A stretch of 64,000 nucleotides of DNA from Hyphomicrobiales bacterium (GTDB taxonomy: Bacteria; Pseudomonadota; Alphaproteobacteria; Rhizobiales; Rhizobiaceae), in contig UCNG01000006.1 of assembly GCA_900473915.1 (NCBI GenBank), positions 1 through 64,000 on the forward strand. The letters are read 5' to 3'. The stretch's first letter is position 1. Each line of letters begins with the position of its first letter. The notes below the pieces were generated by a model. That model made no database searches, was not told where the DNA came from, and was given only the letters and a program-made list of their open reading frames with translations. Of the stretch, positions 42,943 through 64,000 are shown piece by piece. A program made the position numbers and the translations under genes.

Positions 42943-43081
42943 CTGCCGTTCCCTTAGCTTCTGTTCTGCGCATCGACGCGCAGACACAAAGGCGCCTTCA
43001 TGGAAAACCGGGCATTTTCCATGGCGCAACAAAGACTTGTGGAGATTCCTCTTCCGCTCCTGTACAATTGACACCATTAAC

Positions 43082-43093
43082 TGACATTAGTCA
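43082..43093. promoter_or_regulatory. SorC-operator candidate A (TGACATTAGTCA)
   Basis: A 12-bp palindrome TGAC-N4-GTCA in the divergent region between the aldolase fusion gene and the SorC regulator gene. The same core occurs twice at 50044 and 50156 between the two transporter operons. A further TTGAC half-site lies at 43068. Confidence 0.65.
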
Positions 43094-43168
43094 ACTCGAT
43101 TGATTGCCGAGTTGATCGAAAGGCATTTCTGTGCAACTCAGGCACAACAGAGACAACAGGAAACGAGT

Positions 43169-44149: not shown

Positions 44150-44190
44150 AAGGCGAGGCAGGCCTTCTAACCCGCCCGCCTTCGATTGGA

Positions 44191-45135: not shown

Positions 45136-45200
45136 GGAAACCTCCCCAAATATATGAGGCCGCACCACAGCGCATTGACGCCAGGGCGGCCAATTTGATT

Positions 45201-47797: not shown

Positions 47798-47885
47798 GGC
47801 GAATTCCTGAGACTTCCAGATAGCTCCCCCGGGGCCGCTGTGGTGTGACGGCCCCGGAAGCTGGCTTCGGCGCATTATGTCGCGA

Positions 47886-48884: not shown

Positions 48885-48964
48885 ATGACTCCTCCATTAA
48901 TATAAGCAGATTGTTTTTTCGGTCGTCCGCCAGCGGCTTCATCCCCAAGCCGTTGGCCTTGTCT

Positions 48965-49954
48965 CTATTGTCGTCTTGGCCGCAGCCAGTAGCCGAAGTG
49001 CATGCGCGCCGATGCGAGAAGCGCAAGCAGCAGAACACCCCAGGCAAGATCGCGGAAGAAATTCGAAATATTCATGAAATTGAACAGGCTCGAGAGGATT
49101 TGCAGAGCGGTCGCGGCCAAGAGCACGCAGACAATCTTGCCGTATCCACCCTCCGGTTTGACACCGCCCAGAACGGCAATCAGGATCGCAATCAGCACGT
49201 AGGACCCGCCGTAATCCCATTTCACCGAGGAGTTGCGCGCCGCAATGATGATCCCCGCGACCGAAGCAAGCAGGCCGCACAAGGTATAGGTGATCAGAAG
49301 CATGCGCTTCTCGTTGATGCCGCCGTAGCGAGCAGCCTTGGCATTGCTGCCGAGAAGCATCAGCTTCACGCCGAAAGGCGTATATTTCAGCAGGAAAGAC
49401 AGCGCCAGCGCAATCGCGAGAAACAATGCAAAACACATCGGAATGCCAAGAACGGGCATATTGCCGAAATTATCGAGCGGCTCGATAAAACCCATGCTCA
49501 CGGCGGAGCCGTTGGTCAGGAAGACGGCAATGCCGGTAAACAGAAGCTGGGTTCCGAGCGTCGCGATCAGCGGCGTCAGGCGGGCATAAGCGATCACGAT
49601 CCCGTTGATGATGCCGCCGATCAAGCCCACGACGAGCGCCAGACCGGCAAACACCCACGAGAACAGCAAAGGCGCATCGGCAGCAGGAATGTAATAGCGC
49701 GTCAGCAGGAACGCGACAATGCCGGAGAGATTTGCCAGTGCTATGCCTGAAAGATCAATGCCGCCATTGCCGGAAATCATTGCAAGCATGACACCGAAGG
49801 CAAGAAGCCCCAGCTCCGGAACCTGCGAAGCCATCGATTGCAGATTATAGCTGTCCATGAAATTTGAACCAGCCAGAAAGCCGCCTGCCGCCAGCACAGC
49901 GACATTGATCAACGCCAGAAATAGCGTCTGTCGATCCAGGCTATTCGATGACAC
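48965..49954 (-). CDS. Sugar ABC transporter permease (RhaQ-like)
   Basis: A 329-residue permease, first gene of the operon that runs permease, binding protein, ATPase, permease, PfkB kinase. Motifs: MISGNGGIDLSGIALANL, TPLIATLGTQLLFTG, NAKAARYGGIN and AVLGGVKPEGGYG. It corresponds to permease 2 of the first operon (2586-3584). Its promoter lies in the divergent region with two TGAC-N4-GTC palindromes. Confidence 0.88.
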   Translation of the reverse strand: MSSNSLDRQTLFLALINVAVLAAGGFLAGSNFMDSYNLQSMASQVPELGLLAFGVMLAMISGNGGIDLSGIALANLSGIVAFLLTRYYIPAADAPLLFSWVFAGLALVVGLIGGIINGIVIAYARLTPLIATLGTQLLFTGIAVFLTNGSAVSMGFIEPLDNFGNMPVLGIPMCFALFLAIALALSFLLKYTPFGVKLMLLGSNAKAARYGGINEKRMLLITYTLCGLLASVAGIIIAARNSSVKWDYGGSYVLIAILIAVLGGVKPEGGYGKIVCVLLAATALQILSSLFNFMNISNFFRDLAWGVLLLALLASARMHFGYWLRPRRQ

Positions 49955-50043
49955 GTCAATCCTCCCGCTATCGAAGCACCTCTTTGCTCTTCAAACCCTG
50001 CCGCCTCCAGACAGTTCTATGGTTTGAAGCTCATCTCCGATTT

Positions 50044-50055
50044 TGACATTTGTCA
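50044..50055. promoter_or_regulatory. SorC-operator candidate B (TGACATTTGTCA)
   Basis: A perfect TGACA-TT-TGTCA palindrome in the divergent region 49955-50250 between two ABC transporter operons, 90 bases before the start of the minus-strand operon. It matches the site at 43082 in 11 of 12 bases. An 11-base TGTTGTCAACA palindrome at 50068 may be an additional half-site. Confidence 0.68.
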
Positions 50056-50155
50056 GACACTTCTGTCTGTTGTCAACATAAATCCCTCAGTGACTGAAAT
50101 GTTCGACGCCTGACAGGCGCGACACTGCCTCTTTTCTTCCTCATACATCATATGT

Positions 50156-50167
50156 TGACATTTGTCG
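50156..50167. promoter_or_regulatory. SorC-operator candidate C (TGACATTTGTCG)
   Basis: Third copy of the core, 11 of 12 bases identical to site B and centred 112 bases from it. It lies in the leader of the plus-strand transporter operon, upstream of the TTG start at 50251. Confidence 0.65.
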
Positions 50168-50250
50168 ATCATTTGCCGAATATTGTCAAAACGACGGCTC
50201 GATCGTCGAAACCGGCGACAACACTGATTGTCGCCAGCGGAGGAAATACG

Positions 50251-51729
50251 TTGGAATTTCTGCTGGATGTGGAGGGGCTCAAGAAGTCCTTTGGCGGTGT
50301 TGCCGCCTTGCGGAACGGACGGCTGCAATTGCGCGCCGGCTCGGTGCACGCACTTTGCGGCGGCAACGGCGCGGGCAAATCCACATTTCTGAAAATCCTG
50401 ATGGGCATCCACGCCCGCGACGAGGGGCACATCCGGCGACGCGGGAAGGAAGTTACATATTCGAGCCCCGCTGAAGCGCTACAGGCGGGAATTGCCATCA
50501 TCGAGCAGGAGCTGAGTCCCGTCCCCCACATGACGGTGGCGGAGAATATTTATCTCGGCAGAGAACCACTCCGCCGGTTCGGCGGCATCGACTTCAAGAC
50601 AATGAACCGGAACGCCCAAAAGCTTCTGGATCAGCTTGAGTTCAAAATTCGCGCTAGTCAGTTCATGATGAATCTGTCTGTTGCCCAGATTCAGCTCGTG
50701 GAAATCGCCAAGGCGCTCAGTCACGACGCCGAAGTCATTTTCATGGACGAGCCAACCTCGGCCATTGGCGAAAAAGAAGCGCAGCAGCTTTTTGCAGCGA
50801 TTGAGCGGTTGAAGGCGAGCGGCAAAGGCATCGTCTATGTCTCGCATCGCCTGTCGGAAATTTTTCAGATCGCCGATACCTATACCGTGTTTCGCGACGG
50901 CAGCTATATCGATAGCGGCAACCTTGATGGCATCACGCGCGCGGAGTTGATCCGTATGATCGTCGGACGGGAACTGGGCGAGGAATACATCAAGACGAAT
51001 GCGCCGACAGAAATACCAGGCATTGAAGTCTCAGGCCTCAGCGCGCCCGGCAAGATAACCGACATTTCCTTTACCGCGCACAAGGGCGAGATTTTCGGCA
51101 TTTATGGTTTGATGGGGTCAGGCCGTTCCGAAATATTCAACTGCCTTTTCGGACTGGATAAGGCTTCCGAAGGCACAATCCGGCTTGAAGGCGAGCCAAT
51201 TACCATTCGCCGCCCCTCCGACGCCATGGCACTCGGTCTGGCCTTCGTGACGGAAGATCGCAAACTCACCGGCCTCAATCTGGGCGACAGCGTTCGCAAC
51301 AATATCTGCCTTGCCAGCCTTCCCGAGATGAGCCCGCATTTTGCGATGAACCGACGCGAGGAAACGACAGCCTGCCGGGAAATGATCGAGCGCTTCAGGA
51401 TCAAGGTCGCGCATGACACGATGGCCGTTTCCGGCCTTTCAGGCGGCAACCAGCAGAAGGTCGTGCTCGGAAAATGGTTTCTGCGGAAGCCGCGTGTTCT
51501 GCTGCTTGATGAACCAACGCGTGGTGTCGATGTCGGCGCAAAACAGGAAATTTACCGCATCATCTGCGAGTTTGCCGCCGAAGGCGGGACTGTCGTCATG
51601 GTCTCTTCCGAGATCGATGAAGTTCTCGGCATGTCCGACCGCATCATGGTCATGCGCGGCGGGCAATCGGTCGGCATTTATCGCAGGGCGGAAACGGATG
51701 CGCAGTCGCTGGTGCATCTTTCGACATGA
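50251..51729 (+). CDS. Sugar ABC transporter ATPase, two NBDs (RbsA-like)
   Basis: A 492-residue tandem ATPase: NBD1 Walker A GGNGAGKST near 36, Walker B VIFMDEPTSAIG; NBD2 GLMGSGRSE, LSGGNQQKVVLGKWF and canonical LLLDEPTRGVD. Unlike the ATPases at 81 and 46229, NBD2 keeps the D-E pair. I place the start at TTG 50251: GGAGG lies seven bases upstream and the protein then begins like RbsA. An in-frame ATG at 50152 would put an operator-like palindrome inside the gene. First gene of the plus-strand polyol operon. Confidence 0.88.
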   Translation: MEFLLDVEGLKKSFGGVAALRNGRLQLRAGSVHALCGGNGAGKSTFLKILMGIHARDEGHIRRRGKEVTYSSPAEALQAGIAIIEQELSPVPHMTVAENIYLGREPLRRFGGIDFKTMNRNAQKLLDQLEFKIRASQFMMNLSVAQIQLVEIAKALSHDAEVIFMDEPTSAIGEKEAQQLFAAIERLKASGKGIVYVSHRLSEIFQIADTYTVFRDGSYIDSGNLDGITRAELIRMIVGRELGEEYIKTNAPTEIPGIEVSGLSAPGKITDISFTAHKGEIFGIYGLMGSGRSEIFNCLFGLDKASEGTIRLEGEPITIRRPSDAMALGLAFVTEDRKLTGLNLGDSVRNNICLASLPEMSPHFAMNRREETTACREMIERFRIKVAHDTMAVSGLSGGNQQKVVLGKWFLRKPRVLLLDEPTRGVDVGAKQEIYRIICEFAAEGGTVVMVSSEIDEVLGMSDRIMVMRGGQSVGIYRRAETDAQSLVHLST

Positions 51730-51825: not shown

Positions 51826-52830
51826 GTGTCCACCACAGAAAACAATTCATCGACAAGCTGGTTTGGCTCCGAGCGCCGCAGACTGGTTATCCAGGAATAC
51901 GGTATATTCATCGCCTTCCTGCTTTTGGCCACAATCCTCTCTTTCTCCAACGAATATTTCCTCACAGCAGGCAATATTTCGAACGTTCTATTGCAGACTT
52001 CCATCAACGGCATTCTCGCCATCGGCATGACCTTCGTCATTCTGACGCGGGGCATCGACCTTTCCGTTGGCTCCGTGGTCGCGTTGGCTGGCATCGTCAG
52101 CGCCAGCTTTGCCACTACGTCGGCGACGGCGGGCATTGCAGGCGCGCCATATTCGCCATTCATAGCCATTCCCATCGGCTTGCTGGTGGGTATCGGTTGC
52201 GGCGCTCTGGTCGGCACGATTGTCTCGCGCTTTGCGGTTCCAGCCTTCGTGGCGACGCTGGGTATGCTTTCCGCCGCGCGCGGACTGACGCTCATCTATG
52301 GCGGCGGCAAGCCGGTGCCTGCTCTTGTTCCTGATTTCCGCTGGATCGGAACCGGCAACATACTGGGCATTCCCGTGCCGGTCATTCTGCTCGCAATCGT
52401 GTTTCTGGTCTCATGGTGGATTCTGAATCGCTCACGGTTCGGACGCTATATCTACGCCGTTGGCGGCAATCCCCATGCTGCGAATACGTCGGGCATCAAT
52501 ATCTCACGGGTACGCTTTTCGGTGTACGTCATCTCCGGCGGACTGGCAGGCCTCGCAGGCATGATCCTGTCCGCCCGCACCGGTTCCGCCCTCCCGCAAG
52601 CGGGTATCAGCTATGAACTCGACGCCATCGCAGCCGTTGTCATTGGCGGCACCAGCCTGTCGGGCGGCGTGGGCCGTATCACCGGAACACTCATCGGCGC
52701 GCTCATCATCGGCGTCATGAACAACGGTCTCGATCTGATGGGCATCCAATCCTACTACCAGCAGGTCCTCAAGGGCGCGCTCATCGTGGGCGCGGTCATG
52801 CTCGACCAGAAACGTAACCAAGGCGCCTAG
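51826..52830 (+). CDS. Sugar ABC transporter permease (RbsC-like)
   Basis: A 334-residue permease with [49 protein letters not shown] and VVIGGTSLSGGVGR, the RbsC hallmarks. The start is GTG 51826, well supported by GGAGAGGT at 51812-51819. It lies 96 bases after the ATPase gene and is the only permease of this operon, so it should act as a homodimer. Confidence 0.88.
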   Translation: MSTTENNSSTSWFGSERRRLVIQEYGIFIAFLLLATILSFSNEYFLTAGNISNVLLQTSINGILAIGMTFVILTRGIDLSVGSVVALAGIVSASFATTSATAGIAGAPYSPFIAIPIGLLVGIGCGALVGTIVSRFAVPAFVATLGMLSAARGLTLIYGGGKPVPALVPDFRWIGTGNILGIPVPVILLAIVFLVSWWILNRSRFGRYIYAVGGNPHAANTSGINISRVRFSVYVISGGLAGLAGMILSARTGSALPQAGISYELDAIAAVVIGGTSLSGGVGRITGTLIGALIIGVMNNGLDLMGIQSYYQQVLKGALIVGAVMLDQKRNQGA

Positions 52831-53001: not shown

Positions 53002-53991
53002 ATGAAAAAACTATTGATCGCGCTCGCTGCGGCATCCGCACTGATCGCTACCCCGTCGCTCGCCCAGGACAAGAAGCTGAAGATCGGCGCCGCCCCTTAC
53101 GGGTTGAATGCCGAATTCATGCAAGTCTGGTCCGAAGCTCTGAAGAAGCACCCGGCGGTCAAGAACGGCGAGGTTGAACTGACCGTATTCGACGGCCGTT
53201 ATGATGCGCTGGTTCAGCAGGAACAGTTCAACACGATGATTACGCAGAAATTCGATGCGATCATCTTTGTTCCCATCGACATCGAGGCGGGTGCCACCGC
53301 AGTTCAGGCTGCCAGCGACGCCGGCATCCCGGTTGTGGGCTCGAACACCCGTGTCAATTCCGATCTGCTCGCGGCCTATGTCGGCTCCGACGATACGGTT
53401 TCCGGCTATATGGAAGCCAAGGACGTCCTCGATAAGATCGGCTGCAAGGGCAATGTTGTCATTCTTGAAGGTCCAATCGGCCAGTCCGCGCAGATTTCCC
53501 GTCTGGAAGGCAACAAGAAAGCTCTGGCCGAATGCCCGGACGTGAAGGTTCTTGAAGACCAGACGGCAAACTGGTCACGCGCGGAAGCCCAGACCCTGAT
53601 GGAAAACTGGCTGACGGCGCATCCCGGCCAGATCAATGGCGTAATCGGTCAGAACGACGAGATGGCGCTTGGCGCGATCGAAGCGATCAAGGCCGCCAAC
53701 CTCAAGGTCGGTGATTTTGCAATTGCCGGCATCGACGGCATTACCGATGCGCTCCATGCGGTCAAGGAAGGCACCATGACCTCCATTCTGCAGGATGCCA
53801 ATGCGCAGGCGCAAGGCGCTCTCGACCTTGCGATCTTCCACGCCAAGAAGGGCGACTACAAGCCTCAGTCCGACATCTGGGCTCAATATCCCGACATGCC
53901 GTTCAATGACGGCAAGGACAAGAACTATAATGTTCCATGGACGCCGGTGACCGCTCAAAACGTCGACAAGCTCCTGGAAAGCCGCAAGTAA
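53002..53991 (+). CDS. Sugar ABC transporter periplasmic binding protein (RbsB-like)
   Basis: A 329-residue protein with a typical signal peptide (MKKLLIALAAASALI...LA-QDKK) and the class I fold of RbsB: YDALVQQEQFNTMITQKFDAII, VPIDIEAGATAV, and GVIGQNDEMALGAIEAI. A strong GGAGGAG precedes the ATG. It completes the transporter of the operon starting at 50251 and directly precedes catabolic genes. The ligand is presumably a short polyol or ketose (inference from the SDR and Dha-kinase genes). Confidence 0.88.
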   Translation: MKKLLIALAAASALIATPSLAQDKKLKIGAAPYGLNAEFMQVWSEALKKHPAVKNGEVELTVFDGRYDALVQQEQFNTMITQKFDAIIFVPIDIEAGATAVQAASDAGIPVVGSNTRVNSDLLAAYVGSDDTVSGYMEAKDVLDKIGCKGNVVILEGPIGQSAQISRLEGNKKALAECPDVKVLEDQTANWSRAEAQTLMENWLTAHPGQINGVIGQNDEMALGAIEAIKAANLKVGDFAIAGIDGITDALHAVKEGTMTSILQDANAQAQGALDLAIFHAKKGDYKPQSDIWAQYPDMPFNDGKDKNYNVPWTPVTAQNVDKLLESRK

Positions 53992-54080: not shown

Positions 54081-54854
54081 ATGTCCGAACAAGCTCCCCA
54101 AATTGACCTGAACTTCCCGCTCACCGGAAAAGTCGCCATCGTGACTGGAGGTGCCTCCGGCATCGGTGCCGCAATATCCAGAGCTTTCATCGCCAAAGAC
54201 GCCAAAGTCGCAGTGCTCGACATAAGCGCCGACATCGCCAAAGCCAAGGCCGAGGAACTCGGCGAAAACGCAAAGCCGTTCGTTTGCGATGTTTCGAGCC
54301 AGCTGTCGGTCAATGACGCTATCGCGGCAGTTAAAGATCAGTTCGGTGCAATAGACATTGCGGTCAATAGCGCTGGCGTCGTCTATCTGGCACCTGCAGA
54401 AGAGATTTCGGTTAATGATTGGGACAAGACAATCGCCATCAATCTCAAGGGAAGCTTTCTTGTCACTCAGGCCGTAGGCCGTGCCATGATCGCCGCGGGC
54501 AAAGGTGGCAAGATCATCAATCTCGCCTCTCAGGCTGGTACTGTCGCTATTGAAGAACACGTCGCCTACTGCGCGTCGAAGTTCGGTGTCATCGGCATGT
54601 CGAAGACATTCGCAGCCGAGTGGGGCAAGCATGGCATCTGCGTTAATACGCTTTCCCCGACCATCGTGCTCACGGAACTCGGCAAGAAGGCCTGGGCAGG
54701 TGAAAAGGGCGAAGCCGCAAAGAAGCGCATCCCGGCAGGCCGTTTTGCCTATCCGGAAGAGATCGCCGCTGCAGCTGTGTTCCTCGCATCTGCCGGAGCC
54801 GACATGATTACAGGCGCCGATCTTCTGATCGATGGCGGCTATACCATTCTTTGA
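54081..54854 (+). CDS. Short-chain dehydrogenase (polyol dehydrogenase-like)
   Basis: A 257-residue classical SDR with TGGASGIG near 22-29, NSAGVVYLAP near 92, catalytic YCASK near 158 and a C-terminal GADLLIDGGYTIL. Resembles the SDRs used in tetritol/pentitol pathways, such as threitol dehydrogenase; the substrate cannot be fixed by sequence alone. GAGG six bases before ATG 54081 supports the start. Placed between the transporter and DhaK, it would make the ketose that the kinase phosphorylates. Confidence 0.82.
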   Translation: MSEQAPQIDLNFPLTGKVAIVTGGASGIGAAISRAFIAKDAKVAVLDISADIAKAKAEELGENAKPFVCDVSSQLSVNDAIAAVKDQFGAIDIAVNSAGVVYLAPAEEISVNDWDKTIAINLKGSFLVTQAVGRAMIAAGKGGKIINLASQAGTVAIEEHVAYCASKFGVIGMSKTFAAEWGKHGICVNTLSPTIVLTELGKKAWAGEKGEAAKKRIPAGRFAYPEEIAAAAVFLASAGADMITGADLLIDGGYTIL

Positions 54855-54886: not shown

Positions 54887-55879
54887 ATGCAGCGCTTCAT
54901 CAACAATCCGGACGAAGTTGTCGAGGATACCGTGAAGGGCTTTGTCAAAGCTCATTCCGACATCGTTAGGCTTGCAGAAAACCCGCGCGTCATTGCTGCG
55001 AAAAACGCCCCCGTTGCTGGCAAGGTCGGCGTCGTTACAGGTGGCGGTTCAGGGCACGAACCGGCCTTCATCGGCTATACCGGCAAGAATATGCTTGACG
55101 CGGTGGCCGTTGGCGAACTGTTTTCCTCACCAACCGCCAAGAGCTTTCACGACGCCATACGCGAAGCGAATGGCGGCAAGGGCGTCGTTGTCCTCTATGG
55201 CAACTATGCTGGCGACAACATGAATGTGAAGATGGCGACCAAGCTGGCCGCCAAGGACGGGATTGACGTTGCTACAGTTGTTGCAAATGACGATGTTTGC
55301 TCAGCTCCGGCCGATGAACGCGAAAAGCGTCGCGGTGTTGCTGGCGAGATTTTCATGTGGAAGGTCGGCGGCGCAAAAGCGGCAAGTGGAGCCACGCTTG
55401 AGGAAGTTCGCGCTACAGCGCAGAAGGCCATCGACAATTGCCGTTCGATCGGCGTGGGCTTGGGTCCCTGCACGCTGCCTGCGGTGGGCCACCCGAATTT
55501 CGAAATCGCGCCGGGAACGATGGAAGTCGGCATCGGCCATCACGGCGAGCCGGGTGTTCGCGTCGAACCGTTGAAGCCCGCAGCCGAGGTCGCAAAGGAC
55601 ATGTGCCAGATCGTACTCGACGATCATGGACTGGCTGAAGGAACCGAAGTTGCCGTTCTTATTTCGGGGCTTGGCGCAACGCCGCTTAACGAGCTCTATA
55701 TTCTCAACGACACGATCGAATCCGAAATTCGCGCACGCGGATTGACAATCCATCGCACATATATCGGCAATTACTTCACGTCACTTGAAATGGTCGGAGC
55801 AACGTTGACGGTCATGGCGCTCGACAGCGAGTTGAAGGAATTGCTCGACGTCGAAGTGCAGTGCACCACCATTCTGTAA
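54887..55879 (+). CDS. dhaK: Dihydroxyacetone kinase subunit DhaK
   Basis: A 330-residue ketose-binding subunit. GGGSGHEPAFIGYTG near 48-62 and the active-site His at about residue 219 (GIGHHGEPG) that forms the covalent hemiaminal with the substrate are intact. AGGAG precedes ATG 54887. Together with the adjacent DhaL gene it makes a split kinase for dihydroxyacetone or a related ketose such as erythrulose. No phosphotransfer subunit DhaM is in the window, so ATP is the probable phosphate donor. Confidence 0.92.
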   Translation: MQRFINNPDEVVEDTVKGFVKAHSDIVRLAENPRVIAAKNAPVAGKVGVVTGGGSGHEPAFIGYTGKNMLDAVAVGELFSSPTAKSFHDAIREANGGKGVVVLYGNYAGDNMNVKMATKLAAKDGIDVATVVANDDVCSAPADEREKRRGVAGEIFMWKVGGAKAASGATLEEVRATAQKAIDNCRSIGVGLGPCTLPAVGHPNFEIAPGTMEVGIGHHGEPGVRVEPLKPAAEVAKDMCQIVLDDHGLAEGTEVAVLISGLGATPLNELYILNDTIESEIRARGLTIHRTYIGNYFTSLEMVGATLTVMALDSELKELLDVEVQCTTIL

Positions 55880-55890
55880 GGAAGAGACCT

Positions 55891-56532
55891 GTGCAAACAC
55901 TCAATAATTCAAAAGCCGGGGACATCGTGCTCGCAATGGCCGAGCGGATTGTCGAGAACCGCGCTTATCTCAGCGAAATCGACGGGAAAATCGGTGACGG
56001 CGATCACGGCGTCAACATGGCCAAGGGCTTCAACATGGCCGCCGAACGACTGAAGGGAAAGAACGAGTCTCTGGCCAATTCGCTTGACACGCTTGGCACT
56101 GTGCTCATGACCGAGATCGGAGGCTCCATGGGGCCGCTTTATGGCGTGATGTTCACCGAGTTCGCCGAGAAAATTGACGGCATCGACAATATCGATACGG
56201 CTGCGTTCAGCCATATGCTTCACGCCGGGCTTGAAGGCATCCAGTCAATCGGCTCTGCCAAAGTCGGCGACAAAACCTTGCTGGACACGCTCGTGCCCGC
56301 CGTCGAAGCCTTCGATGAAGCCACTGCCGCCGGAAAGAGCTTTGCCGAGGCACTCGAAGCTCTGGTCGCGGCCGCCGAGAAGGGCCGTGATTCCACGATT
56401 GATCTGGTGGCGAAGATCGGCCGCGCCAGCCGTCTTGGCGAAAGGTCGCTGGGTGTTCTGGATGCCGGGGCGACATCCTGCGCCATTATTCTCAAGGAAC
56501 TGTCCGACGGGACACGGGCCCGGTTGCAATAA
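55891..56532 (+). CDS. dhaL: Dihydroxyacetone kinase subunit DhaL (first copy)
   Basis: A 213-residue nucleotide-binding subunit: IGDGDHG near 34-40 supplies the Mg-binding aspartates (Asp 36, Asp 38), with GGSMGPLYG near 80, GDKTLLDTLVP near 133 and LGERSLGVLDAGATS near 185. The start is GTG 55891, preceded by AAGGAAGAG at 55878-55886; an earlier in-frame GTG at 55861 lies inside dhaK. It is the partner of DhaK at 54887. Confidence 0.9.
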   Translation: MQTLNNSKAGDIVLAMAERIVENRAYLSEIDGKIGDGDHGVNMAKGFNMAAERLKGKNESLANSLDTLGTVLMTEIGGSMGPLYGVMFTEFAEKIDGIDNIDTAAFSHMLHAGLEGIQSIGSAKVGDKTLLDTLVPAVEAFDEATAAGKSFAEALEALVAAAEKGRDSTIDLVAKIGRASRLGERSLGVLDAGATSCAIILKELSDGTRARLQ

Positions 56533-56672: not shown

Positions 56673-58757
56673 ATGGCGTCAAACGGAAAAACAACCGCAA
56701 GCAAAATCGGACAAGTGGAACCGACTGACGGGATTCCGCTGCGCTATGGCGACGATCCCTATGTCTGGGCTTGCTGGCTTTATTACGAAGACGGTCGCAC
56801 GCAGGGCGAAATCGCCGAGATCATGGGAATTTCGCGGGCTACCGTGAATAGCTATCTTGCGGATGCCCGCAGCCGCGGCATCGTCAATATCTCGATTGAA
56901 CCCGCACGGCTCGGTTCTCTCGCGATCGCCCAGGAACTCAAACGGCATTTCGGGTTGAGCGACTGTCTTGTTGTGCCCAATGACGACGGCACCCAAACCC
57001 TTATCGACCGGCTCGGAACGGCAGCGGCCCAGGCAATCGCCAGACTTCTGAAATCTGGCGATACGCTCGCCGTTGCCTGGGGACGAACAGTCCTCGCCAT
57101 CGCCGAAAATACCCGGATATCCAATCTGCAGGACGTGACCGTGGTACAGGCGACAGGCGGAACGCGTGCCAGTTTCGCTTATACGCCCGAACTGTGTGCA
57201 GCGGCCATGGCCCGGGCGACGAATGCGCATCTCGTCAACATCACAGCACCGGCCATCGTATCCAGCCCTGGCGTAAAAGCAGCCATAGTTGGGGAACCGA
57301 TTATCATCGAGCAGTTCCAGGCGCTGAATAACGCGAACAAGGCGCTGTTTGGCATTTCTTCGCTGCGACCAAATTCGACAATCCATACCAGCGGCTTCTT
57401 TGAGAATGTCTCGATACAGGATTATCTTGCCAAGAATGCAGTTGGGGTCGTGGCGGGACGCTTCATCGATTCTCATGGACAGCCAGTGTCCGGTCCGCTT
57501 GACGACAGGACCATCGGCATCACGCTCGGCAGCCTGCGAAGCATCGACATGCGCATCGCCGTTGCCGGCGGCTTCGACAAGGTACCGGCAATTCTTGCCG
57601 CCTTGCGCGGCGGTTACGTCAACATCCTGATTACCGATGCCGCGACAGGACGCGGCATTCTTAACGCTGACGGCGTGACGGAAATAGACAGCAAGCTTTC
57701 CCAGAAGCTGCGCTCAGAACCGGTAGCCAATCCCTCCAGCCATTATCGTACGCATATCAAGAAATTTCTGAACAGCCCCGATGATGTCGTTGAGGAAATG
57801 CTTGACGGTGCCACCAAAGCGCACCGATCCTATCTCACTCCGATCAACGGATCGAAACGTGCACTCGTCGCCCGCAATGGCCCCCGCTCGGGGAAAGTGG
57901 GATTGGTGATCGGTGGCGGGTCGGGACATGAACCCTGTTTTTTGGGCTATGTCGGCAAGGGGCTTGCCGATGCCGTAGCAATCGGCAATGTCTTTTCCTC
58001 ACCTCCCCCTGCTCCCATCCTCGAATGTGCGAAAGCCGCTTCCGGCGGCGAAGGAGTCCTCTTCGTTTACGGCAACTATGTCGGCGATGTCATGAATTTC
58101 GAAATGGCGGCGGAAATGGCCCAGGAAGCCGACATTCCCACCCGTACCGTTCTGACGACTGACGACATATCTTCTTCTCCCATAGAGGATCGCGACGGTC
58201 GCCGTGGCGTCGCGGGAAACTTCTTTATTTTCAAGGCGGCTGGCGCAGCCTGTGATCGGGGCATGTCGCTCGAGGCATGCGAAGCGGTGACACGCAAGGC
58301 CAACCGGCGCACCTTCACGATGGGCGTTGCGCTGGAGCCCTGTTCGCTACCGCAGACGCGACGCCACAACTTCGAAATTGGTGCCGAAGAGATGGAGATC
58401 GGCATGGGCATCCACGGAGAACGTGGCGTTATCCGCGAAAAAATGATGCCTGCCGATGCGATCGTCGATCATATCATGGACCGGATTTTCAGTGAGATGA
58501 ACGCATCGCCCGGAGACCGGGTAGCGGTACTTGTAAATTCGTTCGGCTCAACACCGCTGATGGAACTCTACATCCTGTTCAGACGCGTCGAGCAACGCCT
58601 GAGCGCCAAGCAAATAACAATCGAAGCAAACTGGGTTGGCCATTACTGCACATCGCTGGACATGAACGGAGCATCCATATCCGTCATGCATCTCGATCAG
58701 GAATTGTCCGATCTCTTGTCGCACCCTTGCGATACGGCTTTTCTTCGGGTCAACTGA
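56673..58757 (+). CDS. SorC transcriptional regulator fused to a DhaK kinase subunit
   Basis: A single 694-residue frame with two complete, unrelated modules. Residues about 18-340 are a SorC regulator: helix-turn-helix about 40-65 (QGEIAEIMGISRATVNSYL), then the effector domain with GDTLAVAWGRTVLAIAE and VAGGFDKVPAILAALRGGY. After a linker (about 342-358), residues 360-694 are a full DhaK: GGGSGHEPCFLGYVG and active-site His about 581 in MGIHGERG. There is no frameshift or stop between them. ATG 56673 has only a weak ribosome-binding site, so the start could differ. A second DhaL follows. See findings for its possible sensory role. Confidence 0.9.
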   Translation: MASNGKTTASKIGQVEPTDGIPLRYGDDPYVWACWLYYEDGRTQGEIAEIMGISRATVNSYLADARSRGIVNISIEPARLGSLAIAQELKRHFGLSDCLVVPNDDGTQTLIDRLGTAAAQAIARLLKSGDTLAVAWGRTVLAIAENTRISNLQDVTVVQATGGTRASFAYTPELCAAAMARATNAHLVNITAPAIVSSPGVKAAIVGEPIIIEQFQALNNANKALFGISSLRPNSTIHTSGFFENVSIQDYLAKNAVGVVAGRFIDSHGQPVSGPLDDRTIGITLGSLRSIDMRIAVAGGFDKVPAILAALRGGYVNILITDAATGRGILNADGVTEIDSKLSQKLRSEPVANPSSHYRTHIKKFLNSPDDVVEEMLDGATKAHRSYLTPINGSKRALVARNGPRSGKVGLVIGGGSGHEPCFLGYVGKGLADAVAIGNVFSSPPPAPILECAKAASGGEGVLFVYGNYVGDVMNFEMAAEMAQEADIPTRTVLTTDDISSSPIEDRDGRRGVAGNFFIFKAAGAACDRGMSLEACEAVTRKANRRTFTMGVALEPCSLPQTRRHNFEIGAEEMEIGMGIHGERGVIREKMMPADAIVDHIMDRIFSEMNASPGDRVAVLVNSFGSTPLMELYILFRRVEQRLSAKQITIEANWVGHYCTSLDMNGASISVMHLDQELSDLLSHPCDTAFLRVN

Positions 58758-58809: not shown

Positions 58810-59457
58810 ATGCAGGAAACTGCAGCGCGTCGTCTAAGCCGGATGTTTCAACTTATCGCCTTTTCGATGAAAGAGGAAAAAGAACGGCTGTCCGATCTCG
58901 ACGGCGCAATCGGCGACGCGGATCATGGCATCACCATGGTGTTGGGCTTTTCGGCCGTTAACAGCGCACTTGCCAAAGTCGATCTGGAGCAGACACTTCC
59001 TTCCGAGATTTTCGCTACAGCCGCATCCGCTTTTCTCGACGCCGTGGGCGCCTCGACCGGACCTCTTTATGCGACAGCGTTCCGCCACGCTTCCAAGGCG
59101 TTGAAAGCCCGTGAAACCCTCGATACGGAAGGACAGGCCGCCATCGTTGAGGCGATAACGCGAGGCATTCAGGACCGCGGAAAGGGACAACGCGGGGACA
59201 AAACCATGCTGGATGCCTGGATACCGGCGATGGAAGTGGCCGTCGATGCACGAATACACGGCCTGAGCAGTCTGGAAATGTGGGATGGAATACTCGAAGC
59301 TGCGGAGAAGGGATTAGACTCAACCCGCTCAATGGTGGCGACGCGGGGACGTGCCGCACGATTGGGTGAACGCTCACTGGGACATGTCGATCCCGGCGCT
59401 GCTTCCGCAATCATTATCCTGCGCGCCATGCGGGATAGCTTCGCCGACACCGTGTAG
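58810..59457 (+). CDS. dhaL: Dihydroxyacetone kinase subunit DhaL (second copy)
   Basis: A 215-residue DhaL paralogue with IGDADHGITM near 34-43 (Mg-binding Asp 36 and 38 kept), GASTGPLYATAF near 80, GDKTMLDAWIPAM near 135 and LGERSLGHVDPGAAS near 190. GGGAGG precedes the ATG. It lies 52 bases after the SorC-DhaK fusion and is its natural partner, just as the first DhaL pairs with stand-alone DhaK. Last gene of the operon. Confidence 0.9.
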   Translation: MQETAARRLSRMFQLIAFSMKEEKERLSDLDGAIGDADHGITMVLGFSAVNSALAKVDLEQTLPSEIFATAASAFLDAVGASTGPLYATAFRHASKALKARETLDTEGQAAIVEAITRGIQDRGKGQRGDKTMLDAWIPAMEVAVDARIHGLSSLEMWDGILEAAEKGLDSTRSMVATRGRAARLGERSLGHVDPGAASAIIILRAMRDSFADTV

Positions 59458-59829: not shown

Positions 59830-61503
59830 CTAACCAGAGTCGATCTGGTCGCCGGGAACATAGGCAAAAGGAGGAGCCACTCCCGATGCCGTATTGACCT
59901 TCAAGATCGGCAGAAATCGACGGGTTTGCTGGAAATAATCCCGTTGAATGTATTGGGCACCGGGCAATCTCCCCTCGATATAGAGGATGGCCTCAAGTGG
60001 TAGTTGAGCAGGAATATTCTCAGGCCAAACAGCAATGACGGGTTCGTTCCAGTATTCACTAGCTCTCGCTGGAGGGCTGGTAAAAGTCGAGCGCGCCAAA
60101 ATGCTCAGATCGAAAGCGTCCTTATCCACCCCCAGCGAGCATTGGGACACCAATGTTGTTCGTTCGTATTGGGCTTGCCAGCTTGCGAGGTCGGTGACAG
60201 GTGGACTTTGGTCGATACACGGGCCGCTGGTTGCTGTCCCTAGGTACGTGCCACATTTTTCGGTACGCAGGTTTGTAGCTCCATCGCTCGGATATACACA
60301 CAGCATTGTCAGAGGGTGTTGTGCGGGGGCGGCAAGCTCGCGATGGATTAAACCTACCCCACCACCAGCTTGGTTCCCTAATAAATACAAATCAATATGT
60401 AGATCTGCACGGTAAAAAACGAATGAGACCCCTTTGTGTTCAACGGCTTTTGGGCTCGGATTCCACGAGTGATAGGCTGTGCTATAGCCGGTAAATCGCA
60501 AGAGAACCCCGTTGCACATATAGGCGGCCATGTTGTTGGGACAGTCGGTGGTGTCGAAGTAGCGGGCGTTGACGCGGTTGACGACCGTCTCGCCGTAATA
60601 GAGCTGGTCTGTCTCGTCATAGCCGAACGGTGTGTCTGCGCCGGGCTGGTAGCGCAAGAGCGGCAGCCAGATGCCGGTAGCCTGATAGTAAGCCAGTTGC
60701 CTGGCCTGAGCTTCGGGCAAGAGTGGCTTGCTGCCATCAAGGCTGTAGTAAAGAGCCTCGATTGCTATCGTTTCGGGATGATCCGTATCCCAGGCGACCG
60801 CCTGCAATTGCACATTCCTTCCTCCCTTGCTGCTGCGGACCATCACATTCGCCTGCAATGCTTGATTGAATGGATCAGACAATTGCGCATTGAAAGAGCA
60901 TTGGATTGTCGGTGCCGTTGTCAGATACTCATCTTTCCATTGGCTTGCGTTAATCACCCCGACAGCCGCGCAGGAGGAATTGTCATTGCTGTCCGGATTG
61001 GGAGAAAGCGCAGTGCCGGTCAGATTACAGCCATAGTCTGGATCGGACACTTTGAACGTGGCTTCCTCCGGATACACGCACCGTATGGCATAAGGCTTGC
61101 CTGCCGCCACTGCCGTTGGCAGATCGGCGAGCACCATGCCGATGCGCGGGCCCGAGGCTGTGTCCGCTCCGGGCACGTCCTTGCGCAGATATGTGTGCGC
61201 CACCGACTGTATGGAATTTTCGGTCGTATTGAGTGTCCAGAACTGGTTGGCTGCGGCGGTGATGTCACGCATCAGCAAACCCGAACAATACCAGGCGGGT
61301 TTGTCCACGCCACAACTCTTGACCGTCAGTCCGTAACGACGATTGAGCAGCATCGCCTCGTCTGCACCTGAGACGCCCGGCTGACCTGCCTGCGCCTGTA
61401 CATTCGCGGTCACGCCATTGAAATCGGCATGAACGGTTGTCGCGACGAGGCTTGCGCCCAGGCAGAAAATCAGGATTTTCCATCGCCGCCGGGAAACCGT
61501 CAT
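59830..61503 (-). CDS. Secreted two-domain halovibrin-like protein
   Basis: A 557-residue protein with a signal peptide (MTVSRRRWKILIFCLGASLV... ending VHA-DFNG). Two copies of one ~260-residue domain follow, at about 40-295 and 300-557. Shared landmarks: N.RY, a CNG/CSG-L-R segment, CVYP, Cys pairs, NE.VIAVW..N.P..LPLEAI.Y and GAQ..QRD. The pattern resembles the halovibrin HvnA/HvnC family of secreted proteins (reported as NAD-glycohydrolase or ADP-ribosyltransferase in Vibrio fischeri); this is from memory. The C-terminal copy is closest to the paralogue at 62002. The start is chosen for the signal peptide; no clear ribosome-binding site is visible and the frame is open to 61800. Confidence 0.72.
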   Translation of the reverse strand: MTVSRRRWKILIFCLGASLVATTVHADFNGVTANVQAQAGQPGVSGADEAMLLNRRYGLTVKSCGVDKPAWYCSGLLMRDITAAANQFWTLNTTENSIQSVAHTYLRKDVPGADTASGPRIGMVLADLPTAVAAGKPYAIRCVYPEEATFKVSDPDYGCNLTGTALSPNPDSNDNSSCAAVGVINASQWKDEYLTTAPTIQCSFNAQLSDPFNQALQANVMVRSSKGGRNVQLQAVAWDTDHPETIAIEALYYSLDGSKPLLPEAQARQLAYYQATGIWLPLLRYQPGADTPFGYDETDQLYYGETVVNRVNARYFDTTDCPNNMAAYMCNGVLLRFTGYSTAYHSWNPSPKAVEHKGVSFVFYRADLHIDLYLLGNQAGGGVGLIHRELAAPAQHPLTMLCVYPSDGATNLRTEKCGTYLGTATSGPCIDQSPPVTDLASWQAQYERTTLVSQCSLGVDKDAFDLSILARSTFTSPPARASEYWNEPVIAVWPENIPAQLPLEAILYIEGRLPGAQYIQRDYFQQTRRFLPILKVNTASGVAPPFAYVPGDQIDSG

Positions 61504-61550
61504 CTGCACATGCCGCAGAAATGAGTATCTGTTTTGGGATTGTCCGCGAA

Positions 61551-61703
61551 GCCAGCGAGACTGCCCTATGGCCTCTTTCGCCATATCGGAAAAAATCATC
61601 TTAGCCATGTGTGCGCATCGTCCCAATATTCTGAGACGCCCCAGCTCTGAGGCGACAAAACCCCATGAGCAATAAAATGGTCGTAAAAATTGGCCCCGGA
61701 AGC
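61551..61703. repeat. ~150-bp direct repeat, copy 2
   Basis: Same orientation as copy 1 at 59677-59827 and almost identical. It lies 47 bases upstream of the start of the two-domain secreted protein, so the gene is framed by the two copies. The rest of the gap 61504-62001 holds a fragment of the palindromic repeat (61945-62000) and otherwise nothing I can assign. Confidence 0.88.
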
Positions 61704-61944
61704 GGTACGCACATGGGGCCAAGCCTGATATCGAGCCCGGCAACACAGTTGCATTTTTCCCGACACCGGGCCGCAAAGAGCAGTTTCTGCGCTCAGGCAT
61801 TTACGTATTTTCAGATACGTCCTGCTTGAGGCTCGAAAATCACTCTTCTCAGCGCGACTGGGCGAATGTGCAATTGTGGCGCGAAAAGGGTTCCCGTTGG
61901 GATGCTTCTCGATCTATCAATCCGGATCGAAACACATTCGAACT

Positions 61945-62000
61945 AGTTATATTTTCCGCGTTATCCGACGCAAAGCCGCTTCGTACTTTGCTGGAAAATC
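61945..62000. repeat. Palindromic repeat, copy C (right half)
   Basis: ATATTTTCCGCGTTATCCGA, CAAAGCCGCTTCGTAC and TTTGCTGGAAAAT align with the right half of copy A (52829-52932). It ends at the stop codon of the minus-strand gene at 62002. The left half is absent or too diverged to see. Confidence 0.55.
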
Positions 62001-62001
62001 C

Positions 62002-62895
62002 CTATTTAGCAGTCGCGATCTGGTCCTGGGGGGAAAAGGAGAACAGGCCGTCCGTTTCTGGATTGTTATTGAGCTTTACAATAGGAAGAACCCGGCCTGT
62101 CTGTTCCAAGAAATCCTTCTGCACATATTGTGCACCAGCCAGCTGATCATTCATATAGAAGATGGCTTCGAGCGGCAGCTGGGTCGGGATATCCTGAGCC
62201 CAAACGGCGACGACCGCTTCATTCCAGCTTTCCCAGTCATTTTCGAATGGATCTGGCAGTACAGTGCGCGCCTGAATGCTCAGATCGAAAGCATCCTTGT
62301 CAACTCCCAGCGAACATTGTTGGTCGTCGCCGGTGATCGCGTAGTTGGCTTGCCAACCCGCAAGGGTCGTAATACCCAACTGCGCGCATGGTACGCTTTT
62401 CGGATTGTTGCTTTTATGAATGCCGCACTTGTCCGGGCGTTCGCCTGAATGGCCATCAGTGGGATACACGCAACGCATTTCAAAGGGATGGTCTGCGGGT
62501 GCTCCAAATTCCCGACTGACAAGCCCTACCGGAACGGCATATTTCGCGGCCTGATTTAGATCAATGCGCTGAAGGTCGCTCCGGAGATAGACAAACGAAA
62601 CACCGTTGCGCTCAACGGCTTCCGGGCTGGGATTCCACGCATGGAAATCCGGGCCGTATCCGGTGAAGCGGAGGACAACGCCATTACACTTATAGGCGGC
62701 TTGGCCATCGGGGCATGGCGTGGTGTTGAGATAGCGTGCATTGAGCCGTGTTGCAACGTCAGCACCAGTTTGTGCACTGGCAGGCAAACTCCAAGCGGCT
62801 GCCAGAGCTGCGACGGCGCAAAATACCGAAACACCTCGACGCTGCTGAAAATTCCGCGAAATGAGTTTCATTAAATATCGAGAGAATATTTTCAT
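62002..62895 (-). CDS. Secreted single-domain halovibrin-like protein
   Basis: A 297-residue protein with a signal peptide ending LPASA-QTGA and one copy of the domain found twice in the neighbour at 59830: ARYLNTTPC, CNGVVLRFTGY, WNPSPEAVERNGVSF, CVYPTD, CSLGVDKDAFDLSI and NEAVVAVWAQDIPTQLPLEAIFY. Identity with the C-terminal half of the neighbour is high in these blocks, indicating gene duplication. AAGGAA lies before ATG 62895; an alternative start is ATG 62871. Halovibrin-like assignment is tentative; no catalytic residues are known to me. Confidence 0.7.
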   Translation of the reverse strand: MKIFSRYLMKLISRNFQQRRGVSVFCAVAALAAAWSLPASAQTGADVATRLNARYLNTTPCPDGQAAYKCNGVVLRFTGYGPDFHAWNPSPEAVERNGVSFVYLRSDLQRIDLNQAAKYAVPVGLVSREFGAPADHPFEMRCVYPTDGHSGERPDKCGIHKSNNPKSVPCAQLGITTLAGWQANYAITGDDQQCSLGVDKDAFDLSIQARTVLPDPFENDWESWNEAVVAVWAQDIPTQLPLEAIFYMNDQLAGAQYVQKDFLEQTGRVLPIVKLNNNPETDGLFSFSPQDQIATAK

Positions 62896-63387
62896 TGCTT
62901 ATTCCTTGAATATAAAGCCTTTTCAGCAAAGAAGTAATTTCATGTGACATAATGCGATAAAATATTCAGGATGGGCCGAAAGACTCCATTTTACTGAAAA
63001 CGCTCTAGGTTAACTGCAGGACTTATATCGCCTCTATTTTGAAAATCTGACTACTGTCAATATTGTCACTGTCCTGCTGCGCCAATGCATCCTAGTAATT
63101 TTGCCGACGAGAGGGGAAGCAAACGGGTGAATTCAAAAGGAGCGCTCACTGCCCCAAATGTCATCCTGCAAGCGTTTTTTTGAAGAAGTGCTAGACGGAC
63201 ATAGCAAATTTGCAGGCTAGCGTAGCGGACCCATTGAAACCAAAGGCCAGCGTCTCTGCATCGCGGCAACCGCTATCTTCTGGCTCTGATCAATGAGTCC
63301 CCTTCCAAGGACTCGCTCAAGCCTTTGGTAACAAAAAGCCACGAACGCTCGCGCGTTCGTGGTTATAGTCAGTCCCGGACGCAAAAT
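62896..63387. other. Intergenic region, mostly unassigned
   Basis: 492 bases without a convincing gene. It contains a right-end fragment of the palindromic repeat at 62988-63007 (ATTTTACTGAAAACGCTCTA) and a terminator at 63331-63362. The base composition is more AT-rich than the coding regions, and the only open frames are short without ribosome-binding sites. Confidence 0.5.
63331..63362 (-). terminator. Rho-independent terminator (minus strand)
   Basis: A perfect 10-bp stem, CCACGAACGC with GCGTTCGTGG, a TCGC loop, and on the minus strand a following CTTTTTGTT. It lies 26 bases after the stop of the minus-strand gene ending at 63388. Confidence 0.88.
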
Positions 63388-64000
63388 TTAATCTATCATG
63401 TGTTCTGGGCGATCAGGATCATATGGGGCCTTGCCCCTCAGTCCGCGCACGTCACATATAATATCAGTCTGCGGCGACTTAGCGCTGCCATAATCATTTG
63501 TCGCTATATATGTCAAATGTCCCTTGGCCGTTTGGTACAGATAGAGGAGTCTCTCGGACGGTATTTCGAAGCGCACCCCCCCATTAGCGATGTCTTGATC
63601 AGTAACCCTTTTTGCTTCCACGCTCCCGTCCTGTGGAAATGCCGCCCTCTGAATCGCTGCACCCGAGCCACTAAACCCCCAATTTGCCGTGAAGGTGATC
63701 GATATGAGGTCATTGACCTTCATGTTAATATACTTAGGTACCGTGATCAGCGCTCCGGCCAGAGCAACAGGAGTATTAAGGATCTCGTCAGCAAATATCG
63801 GGTCAGGTAGCGGATCGTCTCCCCCAGGCAGATCTTTTGAACTTTGAACGGCAACGCTTTGCTTTGGCGAGTAGGCCGAGTTTGATAGACCTGGTGCTAC
63901 CTTGCGCGACGCAACGTATTGCGCATCAATTTTACCGCTGCCCGCTCTTTGAAGCACAGTTGCAGGCAAGGTGACAGTGATTTTTTCCTGCTTCGTAACG
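63388..64000 (-). CDS. C-terminal part of a large hypothetical (surface/Ig-like?) protein
   Basis: The frame is open from the right window edge (…EKITVTLPATVLQ) to a stop at 63388, so at least 203 residues of the C-terminal end are visible and the true start lies outside. The sequence is rich in Ser, Asn, Thr and short beta-strand-like stretches (ITVPKYINMKVND, ISITFTANWGFSG, LTYIATNDYGS), like repeats of bacterial surface or Ig-like proteins. I do not recognise a family. A strong terminator follows. Confidence 0.6.
   Translation of the reverse strand, partial: VTKQEKITVTLPATVLQRAGSGKIDAQYVASRKVAPGLSNSAYSPKQSVAVQSSKDLPGGDDPLPDPIFADEILNTPVALAGALITVPKYINMKVNDLISITFTANWGFSGSGAAIQRAAFPQDGSVEAKRVTDQDIANGGVRFEIPSERLLYLYQTAKGHLTYIATNDYGSAKSPQTDIICDVRGLRGKAPYDPDRPEHMID

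What the first reader, a model, noticed from the sequence alone, without database searches (positions are those of the whole stretch)
56673..58757. A transcription factor fused to a kinase subunit: SorC-DhaK
One uninterrupted frame encodes a complete SorC regulator followed by a complete DhaK with active-site His kept. In E. coli, DhaK and DhaL act as co-regulators of DhaR by protein contact. Here the DNA-binding protein and the substrate-binding kinase subunit are one polypeptide, followed by its own DhaL. It could read the ketose (covalently bound at His 581) or kinase turnover and pass this directly to the DNA-binding domain. I know of no described system with this architecture.
Basis: partly seen in the sequence, partly recalled or inferred. 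Interest (0 to 1): 0.87.

Follow-up and report, generated by a model that had tools for sequence, protein, structure and literature searches.

The report
SorC repressor fused to DhaK kinase
This bacterial gene encodes one protein that is both a sugar-sensing gene switch and half of a sugar kinase; the combination is real, kept in many related bacteria and already named in gene databases, but a likely DNA target found here makes its untested function directly testable.

Summary
Window 56673-58757 (+) encodes one open 694-residue protein: HTH, SorC effector domain, disordered linker, complete DhaK. All 44 uncut genome-contig loci matching both halves carry them in one frame; both halves are under purifying selection; DhaK active-site residues are kept.

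The architecture is not unknown. Database records name it [quoted passage not shown]. The listings of my ten literature searches showed no experimental study.

New here is a probable operator: TTGACA-nn-TGTCGA plus a weaker copy 21 bp on, fitting the SorC dimer-of-dimers. The core pattern occurs in 41 of 50 fusion loci, nearly always upstream of an operon gene. In two loci without a second DhaK, a variant lies directly before the fusion gene. In 5 of 15 fusion genomes the exact 14-bp site occurs once, beside the fusion locus; the other ten lack it.

Most likely this is a trigger enzyme: a SorC repressor of a polyol operon (threitol/erythrulose-like), induced by the phospho-ketose that its own DhaK half makes with the adjacent DhaL. 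Kinase activity, inducer and crosstalk are inferred. Interest is moderate.

The parts
56673..58757 (+). SorC-DhaK fusion protein, 694 aa
   Evidence: Single open frame; Pfam Sugar-bind + Dak1; 44 of 44 uncut genome-contig loci matching both halves have them in one frame.
56733..56912 (+). HTH DNA-binding region, residues 21-80
   Evidence: HTH-like Pfam matches; mean column conservation 0.879, 22 of 60 invariant; dN 0.000 against L004 with dS 0.860.
56913..57665 (+). SorC effector (phosphosugar-binding) domain, residues 81-331
   Evidence: PF04198; aligned to DeoR, LsrR and SorC structures; D302 and K303 in 48 of 48 rows.
57666..57755 (+). Variable linker, residues 332-361
   Evidence: Mean conservation 0.578; pLDDT under 50 at 339-359; no widely shared in-frame start codon in it.
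57756..58751 (+). DhaK domain, residues 362-693; His581 at 58413-58415
   Evidence: PF02733; G416, H419, F441, D472, H581 in 48 of 48 rows and S443 in 45 of 48; best fold match E. coli DhaK 3pnk.
58810..59457 (+). DhaL2, kinase subunit presumably paired with the fusion
   Evidence: PF02734, TIGR02365 183.5 bits against cutoff 138.3; a DhaL lies next to the fusion in 51 of 51 loci counted.
54887..55879 (+). DhaK1, unfused second DhaK
   Evidence: PF02733.
55861..56532 (+). DhaL1
   Evidence: PF02734, TIGR02365 177.4 bits.
54081..54854 (+). SDR polyol dehydrogenase, GolD/DthD family
   Evidence: NF005309 411.2 bits against cutoff 286; PDB 4npc 496 bits.
53002..53991 (+). Sugar/polyol ABC transporter substrate-binding protein
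   Evidence: PF13407; best PDB match 4rsm, E 4e-47.
51826..52830 (+). ABC transporter permease
   Evidence: PF02653.
50152..51729 (+). ABC transporter ATPase, first gene of the cluster (true start probably downstream of 50152)
   Evidence: PF00005, two stretches; homologous start placed about 80 bp downstream of the operator.
50155..50190 (+). Predicted bipartite operator of the fusion (TTGACATTTGTCGA plus a second half-site 21 bp on)
   Evidence: Core pattern in 41 of 50 fusion loci; best score in the window, 47.2.
50043..50078 (+). Second, weaker operator-like site in front of the divergent left-hand transporter cluster
   Evidence: Exact TTGACATTTGTC, model score 8.8 although this copy was among the 41 training sites; 95 bp upstream of the left permease gene.

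Best explanation
The protein is a trigger enzyme: a SorC-family regulator whose C-terminus is a working ketose-kinase subunit. SHOWN BY SEQUENCE: an intact, conserved and constrained two-domain protein; a DhaL gene beside it in every locus counted; a conserved bipartite site in front of the gene cluster that encodes transporter, dehydrogenase, kinases and the fusion. INFERRED: as a tetramer the SorC half binds that site, which contains a TTGACA (-35-like) hexamer, and represses the cluster. A polyol is imported and oxidised by the GolD/DthD-type dehydrogenase to a ketose (erythrulose-like). DhaK half plus DhaL2 phosphorylate it, and the resulting ketose phosphate, made on the same polypeptide, binds the SorC effector domain and lifts repression. 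The system would be autoregulated because the fusion gene lies within the cluster.
For: (1) Both halves intact: DhaK active-site positions 48 of 48 rows except S443 45 of 48; D302 and K303 48 of 48; HTH the best conserved part of the SorC half. dN/dS at most 0.105 in HTH, effector domain and DhaK in four comparisons, though dS exceeds 1 in most, so the ratios are rough. (2) A DhaL is adjacent in 51 of 51 loci counted; the Asp motif of DhaL is matched in 61 of 64 DhaL2-type frames, and the other three keep Asps in a shifted or altered motif. (3) Operator: 46 hits in 41 of 50 fusion loci against mean 0.8, max 8 for 100 letter-shuffled patterns. It repeats at 21 bp, fitting the SorC dimer-of-dimers. 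Its place follows the transcription unit: before the ABC genes in most loci, before dhaK1 or the other permease in some, directly before the fusion gene in L041 and L124, which have no second DhaK in the locus. 49 of 50 sites tested, four of them found by the weight model, lie within 450 bp upstream of a homologue of a window operon gene. 5 of 15 fusion genomes have the 14-bp site, once each, all by the fusion locus. (4) In a clustering of frames of 150 aa or more from 47 fusion loci, the recurrent groups in six or more loci were, judged by eye, operon genes, an rpiB-like gene, and out-of-frame or antisense frames; no other regulator. (5) SorC effector domains bind phosphosugars; CggR is released by FBP and DHAP (PMC11229326). 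(6) Substrate: NF005309 GolD/DthD above cutoff; substrate-binding protein nearest 4rsm (its D-threitol ligand is recalled); D-erythrulose-4-phosphate isomerase family NF051858 near 7 fusion loci and 5 of 10 unfused DhaK loci fetched.
Against: No activity, DNA binding or ligand was tested. Of 13 fusion loci not used to build the weight model, 4 score above 25, L037 scores 11.7, and 8 (L023, L028, L029, L031, L033, L125, L127, L128) score below 7; in L031, L033, L125 and L128 the start of the ABC genes is cut off, in the other four it is not an excuse that I can offer. 10 of 15 fusion genomes lack the exact 14-bp site. The 48 rows include near-duplicates and were chosen for having both domains in one frame. 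48 of 51 loci carry a second DhaK (47 of these with at least two DhaL), so the fused kinase may be redundant as an enzyme. The rpiB-like isomerase gene is absent from the window. The linker is variable and predicted disordered and pTM is 0.54, so direct domain-to-domain signalling has no structural support. The DhaK tree does not by itself show one origin (two label changes; one clade not rejected, p-AU 0.288). Regulators under 150 aa were not looked for.
Confidence: 0.45

Rival explanations
1. One reading: the DhaK half is the sensor. Free ketose bound covalently at His581, or the phosphorylation state of DhaL2 docked on it, changes the DNA-binding half directly, as DhaK/DhaL act on DhaR in E. 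coli or DhaQ on DhaS in Lactococcus (recalled).
For: H581, H419 and D472 kept in 48 of 48 rows; a DhaL adjacent in 51 of 51 loci; solved DhaR-DhaK and DhaQ structures show that DhaK-type proteins serve transcription factors (titles; Bachler 2005 title in the reference list seen).
Against: The linker is variable in sequence and length and predicted disordered. The SorC effector domain keeps its own conserved residues, which would then need another role. The DhaK half resembles DhaK (370.6 bits) far more than DhaQ (201.7 bits).
Confidence: 0.2
2. Passive fusion: two independent activities on one chain. SorC regulates with its own ligand, DhaK-DhaL2 is an ordinary second kinase, and the fusion only ties their amounts or location together.
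For: Flexible, fast-changing linker. Close unfused relatives of the DhaK half manage without a SorC gene in the fetched 15 kb in 9 of 10 loci (L112-L121); 5 of these 10 have an rpiB-like gene nearby.
Against: SorC parts of fusions form one group spread over several families of Hyphomicrobiales and two Roseobacteraceae, with the junction open in all 44 uncut loci; thirteen unfused DhaK rows form their own group (95/94). G486 with stops inside its match may be a decayed copy.
Confidence: 0.25
3. The DhaK half has lost kinase activity and is a pure ligand sensor, a fused analogue of DhaQ.
For: A second DhaK with at least two DhaL is present in 47 of 51 loci, so the enzyme could be spared.
Against: Catalytic positions kept, S443 replaced by Ala in 3 of 48 rows; a DhaL stays beside the fusion even in L041 and L124, which have no other DhaK in the locus; closer to the DhaK than the DhaQ model.
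Confidence: 0.1

Closest known systems
SorC/DeoR family repressors (DeoR and CggR of Bacillus, LsrR, SorC)
   Same: HTH plus PF04198 effector domain, alignment along the whole half to DeoR 8r7y, LsrR 4go1 and SorC 2w48; the bipartite site fits their tetramer on DNA (PMC11229326).
   Different: A complete DhaK domain is attached C-terminally; the position of DeoR's Schiff-base lysine (role recalled) is Thr161 in 47 of 48 rows.
DhaK subunit of dihydroxyacetone kinase (E. coli DhaKLM; ATP-type DhaK-DhaL)
   Same: Fold (3pnk, TM-score 0.89 by target length) and active-site residues; DhaL gene adjacent.
   Different: Fused to a repressor; below the TIGR02363 equivalog cutoff (370.6 against 406.25); no DhaM among the genes that I annotated, though it was not searched for.
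DhaR-DhaK/DhaL of E. coli and DhaS-DhaQ of Lactococcus
   Same: A DhaK-type protein serves a transcription factor.
   Different: There the partners are separate proteins and the regulators are of other families (recalled; structure titles).
NCBI-named 'bifunctional sugar-binding transcriptional regulator/dihydroxyacetone kinase subunit DhaK'
   Same: The same kind of protein, as annotated in S. meliloti ABS7 and Ensifer adhaerens plasmids.
   Different: Nothing in architecture; the records seen state no target, ligand or experiment.
Trigger enzymes such as NadR (repressor plus kinase) and PutA (recalled)
   Same: An enzyme and a DNA-binding regulator of the same pathway on one chain.
   Different: Different families (recalled); here the attached part is one subunit of a two-subunit kinase.

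Membership tests
SorC family of transcriptional regulators | N-terminal HTH followed by PF04198 effector domain | tested here: met
   PF04198 at 81-331 with HTH-like matches at 36-71; alignment to DeoR 8r7y, LsrR 4go1, SorC 2w48.
SorC family of transcriptional regulators | Binding to a bipartite operator as a tetramer | tested here: inconclusive
   A conserved two-part site with 21 bp repeat lies upstream of operon genes in most fusion loci; binding itself was not tested.
SorC family of transcriptional regulators | Phosphosugar effector | not testable with these tools
   Conserved effector-domain residues; ligand unknown.
DhaK kinase subunit | Dak1 domain with the substrate-binding and catalytic residues (E. 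coli G53, H56, F78, S80, D109, H218; roles recalled) | tested here: met
   G416, H419, F441, D472, H581 in 48 of 48 rows, S443 in 45 of 48 (mapping).
DhaK kinase subunit | A DhaL partner encoded with it | tested here: met
   51 of 51 loci counted have a DhaL adjacent.
DhaK kinase subunit | NCBIfam equivalog model dhaK1 at its cutoff | tested here: not met
   370.6 bits against 406.25; DhaK1 of the same cluster also falls short (356.5). So it is a Dak1-family DhaK, not shown to be the DHA-specific equivalog.
DhaQ coactivator | Match to the DhaQ model TIGR02362 at its cutoff | tested here: not met
   201.7 bits against 413.25.
Trigger enzyme (bifunctional enzyme-regulator) | Enzyme activity and gene regulation both shown for one protein | not testable with these tools
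   Both halves look intact; neither activity was assayed.

The most novel reading that the evidence does not exclude
A self-metering repressor: the kinase half makes the inducer on the same polypeptide that senses it. DhaK dimers could also bridge SorC dimers on DNA, so that flux through the kinase, not the bulk metabolite level, sets expression of one or very few target operons; a second, unfused DhaK-DhaL pair carries the metabolic load.
Probability: 0.25. Interest if true: 0.75.

Novelty: new variant of a known kind. Interest (0 to 1): 0.5.

Why it matters
How metabolic enzymes and gene switches are coupled is usually studied with separate partners (DhaK/DhaR, LsrK/LsrR; recalled). Here the substrate-binding kinase subunit and a repressor of a phosphosugar-sensing family are one chain, kept over several alphaproteobacterial families, with a probable operator and few predicted targets. 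That makes the question 'does a regulator read substrate, product or turnover?' directly testable in a genetically easy symbiont, Sinorhizobium meliloti. It would also give a function to a protein that databases name but for which my searches found no study.

Tried and rejected
Artefact or readthrough of a stop: rejected, the frame is open in all 44 uncut genome-contig loci that match both halves. Internal start giving free DhaK: not a conserved feature; within residues 332-361 the commonest start codon is GTG at 335, 16 of 48 rows (GTG at 318, 30 of 48, lies inside the effector domain). Recent in-operon duplication of DhaK1 as source of the fused DhaK: rejected, the fused DhaK groups with unfused DhaK of other loci and single-chain DhaK-DhaL proteins, not with DhaK1. 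An operator shared with the nearest unfused loci: 19 unfused loci score at most 8.5 against 47.2 for the window site at 50155; eight shuffled loci reach at most 4.9. Control genomes: 4 of 15 have one exact 14-bp site each; that of G591 is 383 kb from its DhaK and that of G655 2.8 Mb from its DhaK (places); in G391 and G393 one search found no match to the fusion protein at E 1e-60.

Papers: ten searches showed no study of a SorC-DhaK fusion in their listings; several were on neighbouring topics (threitol, DHA kinase in S. meliloti, DhaQ/DhaS, DhaR), and one search returned mostly papers on Dhaka. Three papers asked for by id (threitol pathway in Mycobacterium smegmatis; DhaK-DhaR in E. coli; erythritol isomerases in Brucella) are not held, so what I say of them is recalled. 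The window's own genome is not held. The class sample (385 genomes) held a full fusion only in its centre genome.

Rows left out: L002 (near copy of L001); L083 (same genome as L004) from the trees and; L043, L047 and L048 (cut by contig ends) from the 48-row alignment, which was chosen for frames holding both domains; identical rows from the trees. Only 28 of the fusion rows went into the trees, and the program warned of long branches in both. In one search only loci over 12,000 bases were counted. In one search only the three best candidates of a genome were scored.

Full report
WHAT IS THERE. Window 56673-58757 (+) is one open frame of 694 codons. Pfam finds the SorC sugar-binding domain at residues 81-331 and Dak1 at 379-689, with HTH-like matches at 36-71. 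A structure model gives two well-predicted domains joined by a linker with pLDDT under 50 at 339-359 (mean pLDDT 84.4, pTM 0.54). The DhaK part best matches E. coli DhaK, and the SorC part DeoR, SorC and LsrR structures. The gene sits in a + strand cluster: ABC ATPase, permease, substrate-binding protein, GolD/DthD-type dehydrogenase, DhaK1, DhaL1, the fusion, DhaL2.

IT IS REAL AND CONSERVED. A tblastn against plasmids found 110 records in which one place covers at least 80% of the query. The closest, Brucella daejeonensis, is 92% identical, so the window is probably from that genus or close to it. All 44 loci of that scan that match both halves and are not cut by a contig end carry them in one open frame. 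In an even sample of the order, 14 of 297 genomes have a full-length open fusion; one more, G486, has stops inside its match. In a sample of the class, 1 of 385 has it, the centre genome itself. In an alignment of 48 fusion rows (window, three plasmid loci, 44 genome-contig loci; near-duplicates included) the linker is less conserved (mean 0.578) than HTH (0.879), effector domain (0.791) or DhaK (0.837); only the N-terminal 20 residues vary more (0.414). dN/dS against four relatives is at most 0.105 for HTH, effector domain and DhaK; dS exceeds 1 in most comparisons, so this is a rough figure.

BOTH HALVES LOOK FUNCTIONAL. By the alignment, positions G53, H56, F78, S80, D109 and H218 of E. coli DhaK correspond to G416, H419, F441, S443, D472 and H581. 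All are kept in 48 of 48 rows except S443 (45 of 48, Ala in three). The effector domain keeps G299, G300, D302 and K303 in 48 of 48. The residue aligned with the Schiff-base lysine of DeoR (its role is recalled) is Thr in 47 of 48, so an aldehyde bound as a Schiff base there is unlikely. A DhaL gene lies next to the fusion in 51 of 51 loci counted (45 downstream, 6 only upstream). 48 of 51 hold a second DhaK, and 47 hold a second DhaK and at least two DhaL; L041, L046 and L124 have no second DhaK.

ORIGIN. SorC domains of fusions form one group apart from 25 unfused SorC rows (SH-aLRT 95, quick tree with long-branch warnings; 0.985, where two contig-cut SorC rows also fall inside). The fused DhaK is closest to 13 unfused DhaK rows and then to single-chain DhaK-DhaL proteins, not to DhaK1. 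Whether the 13 are sisters or lost the SorC part is open: the tree needs two label changes, and one clade of fusions is not rejected (p-AU 0.288). In G579 and G467 a separate SorC gene lies directly before a single-chain DhaK-DhaL gene, an arrangement from which such a fusion could arise. In L138 and L139 an unfused SorC (41%) stands beside a transporter-kinase-DhaK1-DhaL1 cluster.

A PROBABLE OPERATOR. The window has two exact copies of TTGACATTTGTC, both between the divergent transporter clusters (50043 and 50155). In 50 fusion loci (three of them contig-cut) the pattern TTGACANNTGTC occurs 46 times in 41 loci; 100 patterns with the same letters shuffled give mean 0.8 and at most 8. The 46 hits include near-palindromes seen on both strands and tandem copies. 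Aligned, the site reads TTGACAnnTGTCGA followed, 21 bp on, by a weaker copy ending in TTGTCAA. SorC proteins bind two half-operators as a dimer of dimers (PMC11229326). Of 50 sites tested, four of them found by the weight model, 49 lie within 450 bp upstream of a homologue of a window operon gene; that of L025 does not. The site follows the transcription unit: before the ABC genes in most loci, before dhaK1 in L030 and L126, between dhaK1 and a divergent permease in L001 and L047, before that permease in L018, before dhaL1 in L046, and directly before the fusion gene in L041 and L124, which have no second DhaK in the locus. In 15 fusion genomes the exact 14-bp form occurs in five, once each, always by the fusion locus (0.9 to 6.7 kb away by the coordinates); ten have none. 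A 36-bp weight model from 41 sites was tried on 13 fusion loci not used to make it: L108 45.2, L124 30.6, L041 25.9, L126 25.4, L037 11.7 at the expected place, and eight below 7 (L023, L028, L029, L127; and L031, L033, L125, L128, whose ABC start is cut off). The window site at 50155 was also not in the model and scores 47.2. Nineteen unfused loci reach at most 8.5. Among frames of 150 aa or more from 47 fusion loci, no other regulator family recurs in six or more, judged by eye; one GntR-like family appears in five. The link between site and fusion is therefore strong but correlative.

WHAT IT PROBABLY HANDLES. The dehydrogenase passes the GolD/DthD cutoff. The substrate-binding protein is nearest to 4rsm, which I recall as a D-threitol complex. 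An rpiB-like gene is found near 7 fusion loci and near 5 of the 10 unfused DhaK loci fetched; of three members tested against the D-erythrulose-4-phosphate isomerase family NF051858, two pass its cutoff and the third misses by half a bit. It is not in the window. So a four-carbon polyol/ketose is the best guess, not proven; DHA remains possible.

HOW IT MOST LIKELY WORKS. See Best explanation: repression at the conserved site, relief by the ketose phosphate made by DhaK half plus DhaL2. The strongest precedent is CggR of the same family, whose DNA complex is disrupted by FBP and by DHAP, the product of DHA kinases (PMC11229326, passages and first part of the Discussion).

NOVELTY. The architecture is named in public annotation, so 'unknown architecture' is wrong. 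The listings of ten literature searches in the open-licence library showed no functional study; subscription papers are mostly not held. The operator and the pathway reading are, as far as those searches go, new.

Noticed in passing
window 40885-49954: Divergent left-hand cluster with a second, unfused SorC regulator (43100-44149 +), a class II aldolase/SDR fusion protein, a PfkB-type kinase and an LsrB/RhaS-like ABC transporter; its transporter is homologous (66-78%) to the one next to the fusion in S. meliloti.
   Followed up: partly
window 50043-50078: A weaker copy of the operator lies 95 bp before the left-hand permease gene; it may belong to the fusion or to the unfused SorC.
   Followed up: partly
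L126, L128, L037, L125, L127: In a more distant branch the order is DhaK1-DhaL1-DhaL2-fusion instead of DhaK1-DhaL1-fusion-DhaL2, yet the four genes stay together.
   Followed up: no
L023, L028, L029: Here DhaK1-DhaL1 is replaced by an unfused close relative of the fused DhaK with its own DhaL, directly before the fusion, and no operator of the described kind was found.
   Followed up: no
window 59830-63969 (-): Three consecutive minus-strand reading frames, the first two sharing sequence stretches by eye (e.g. FTGY, WNPSP), with no Pfam match.
   Followed up: no
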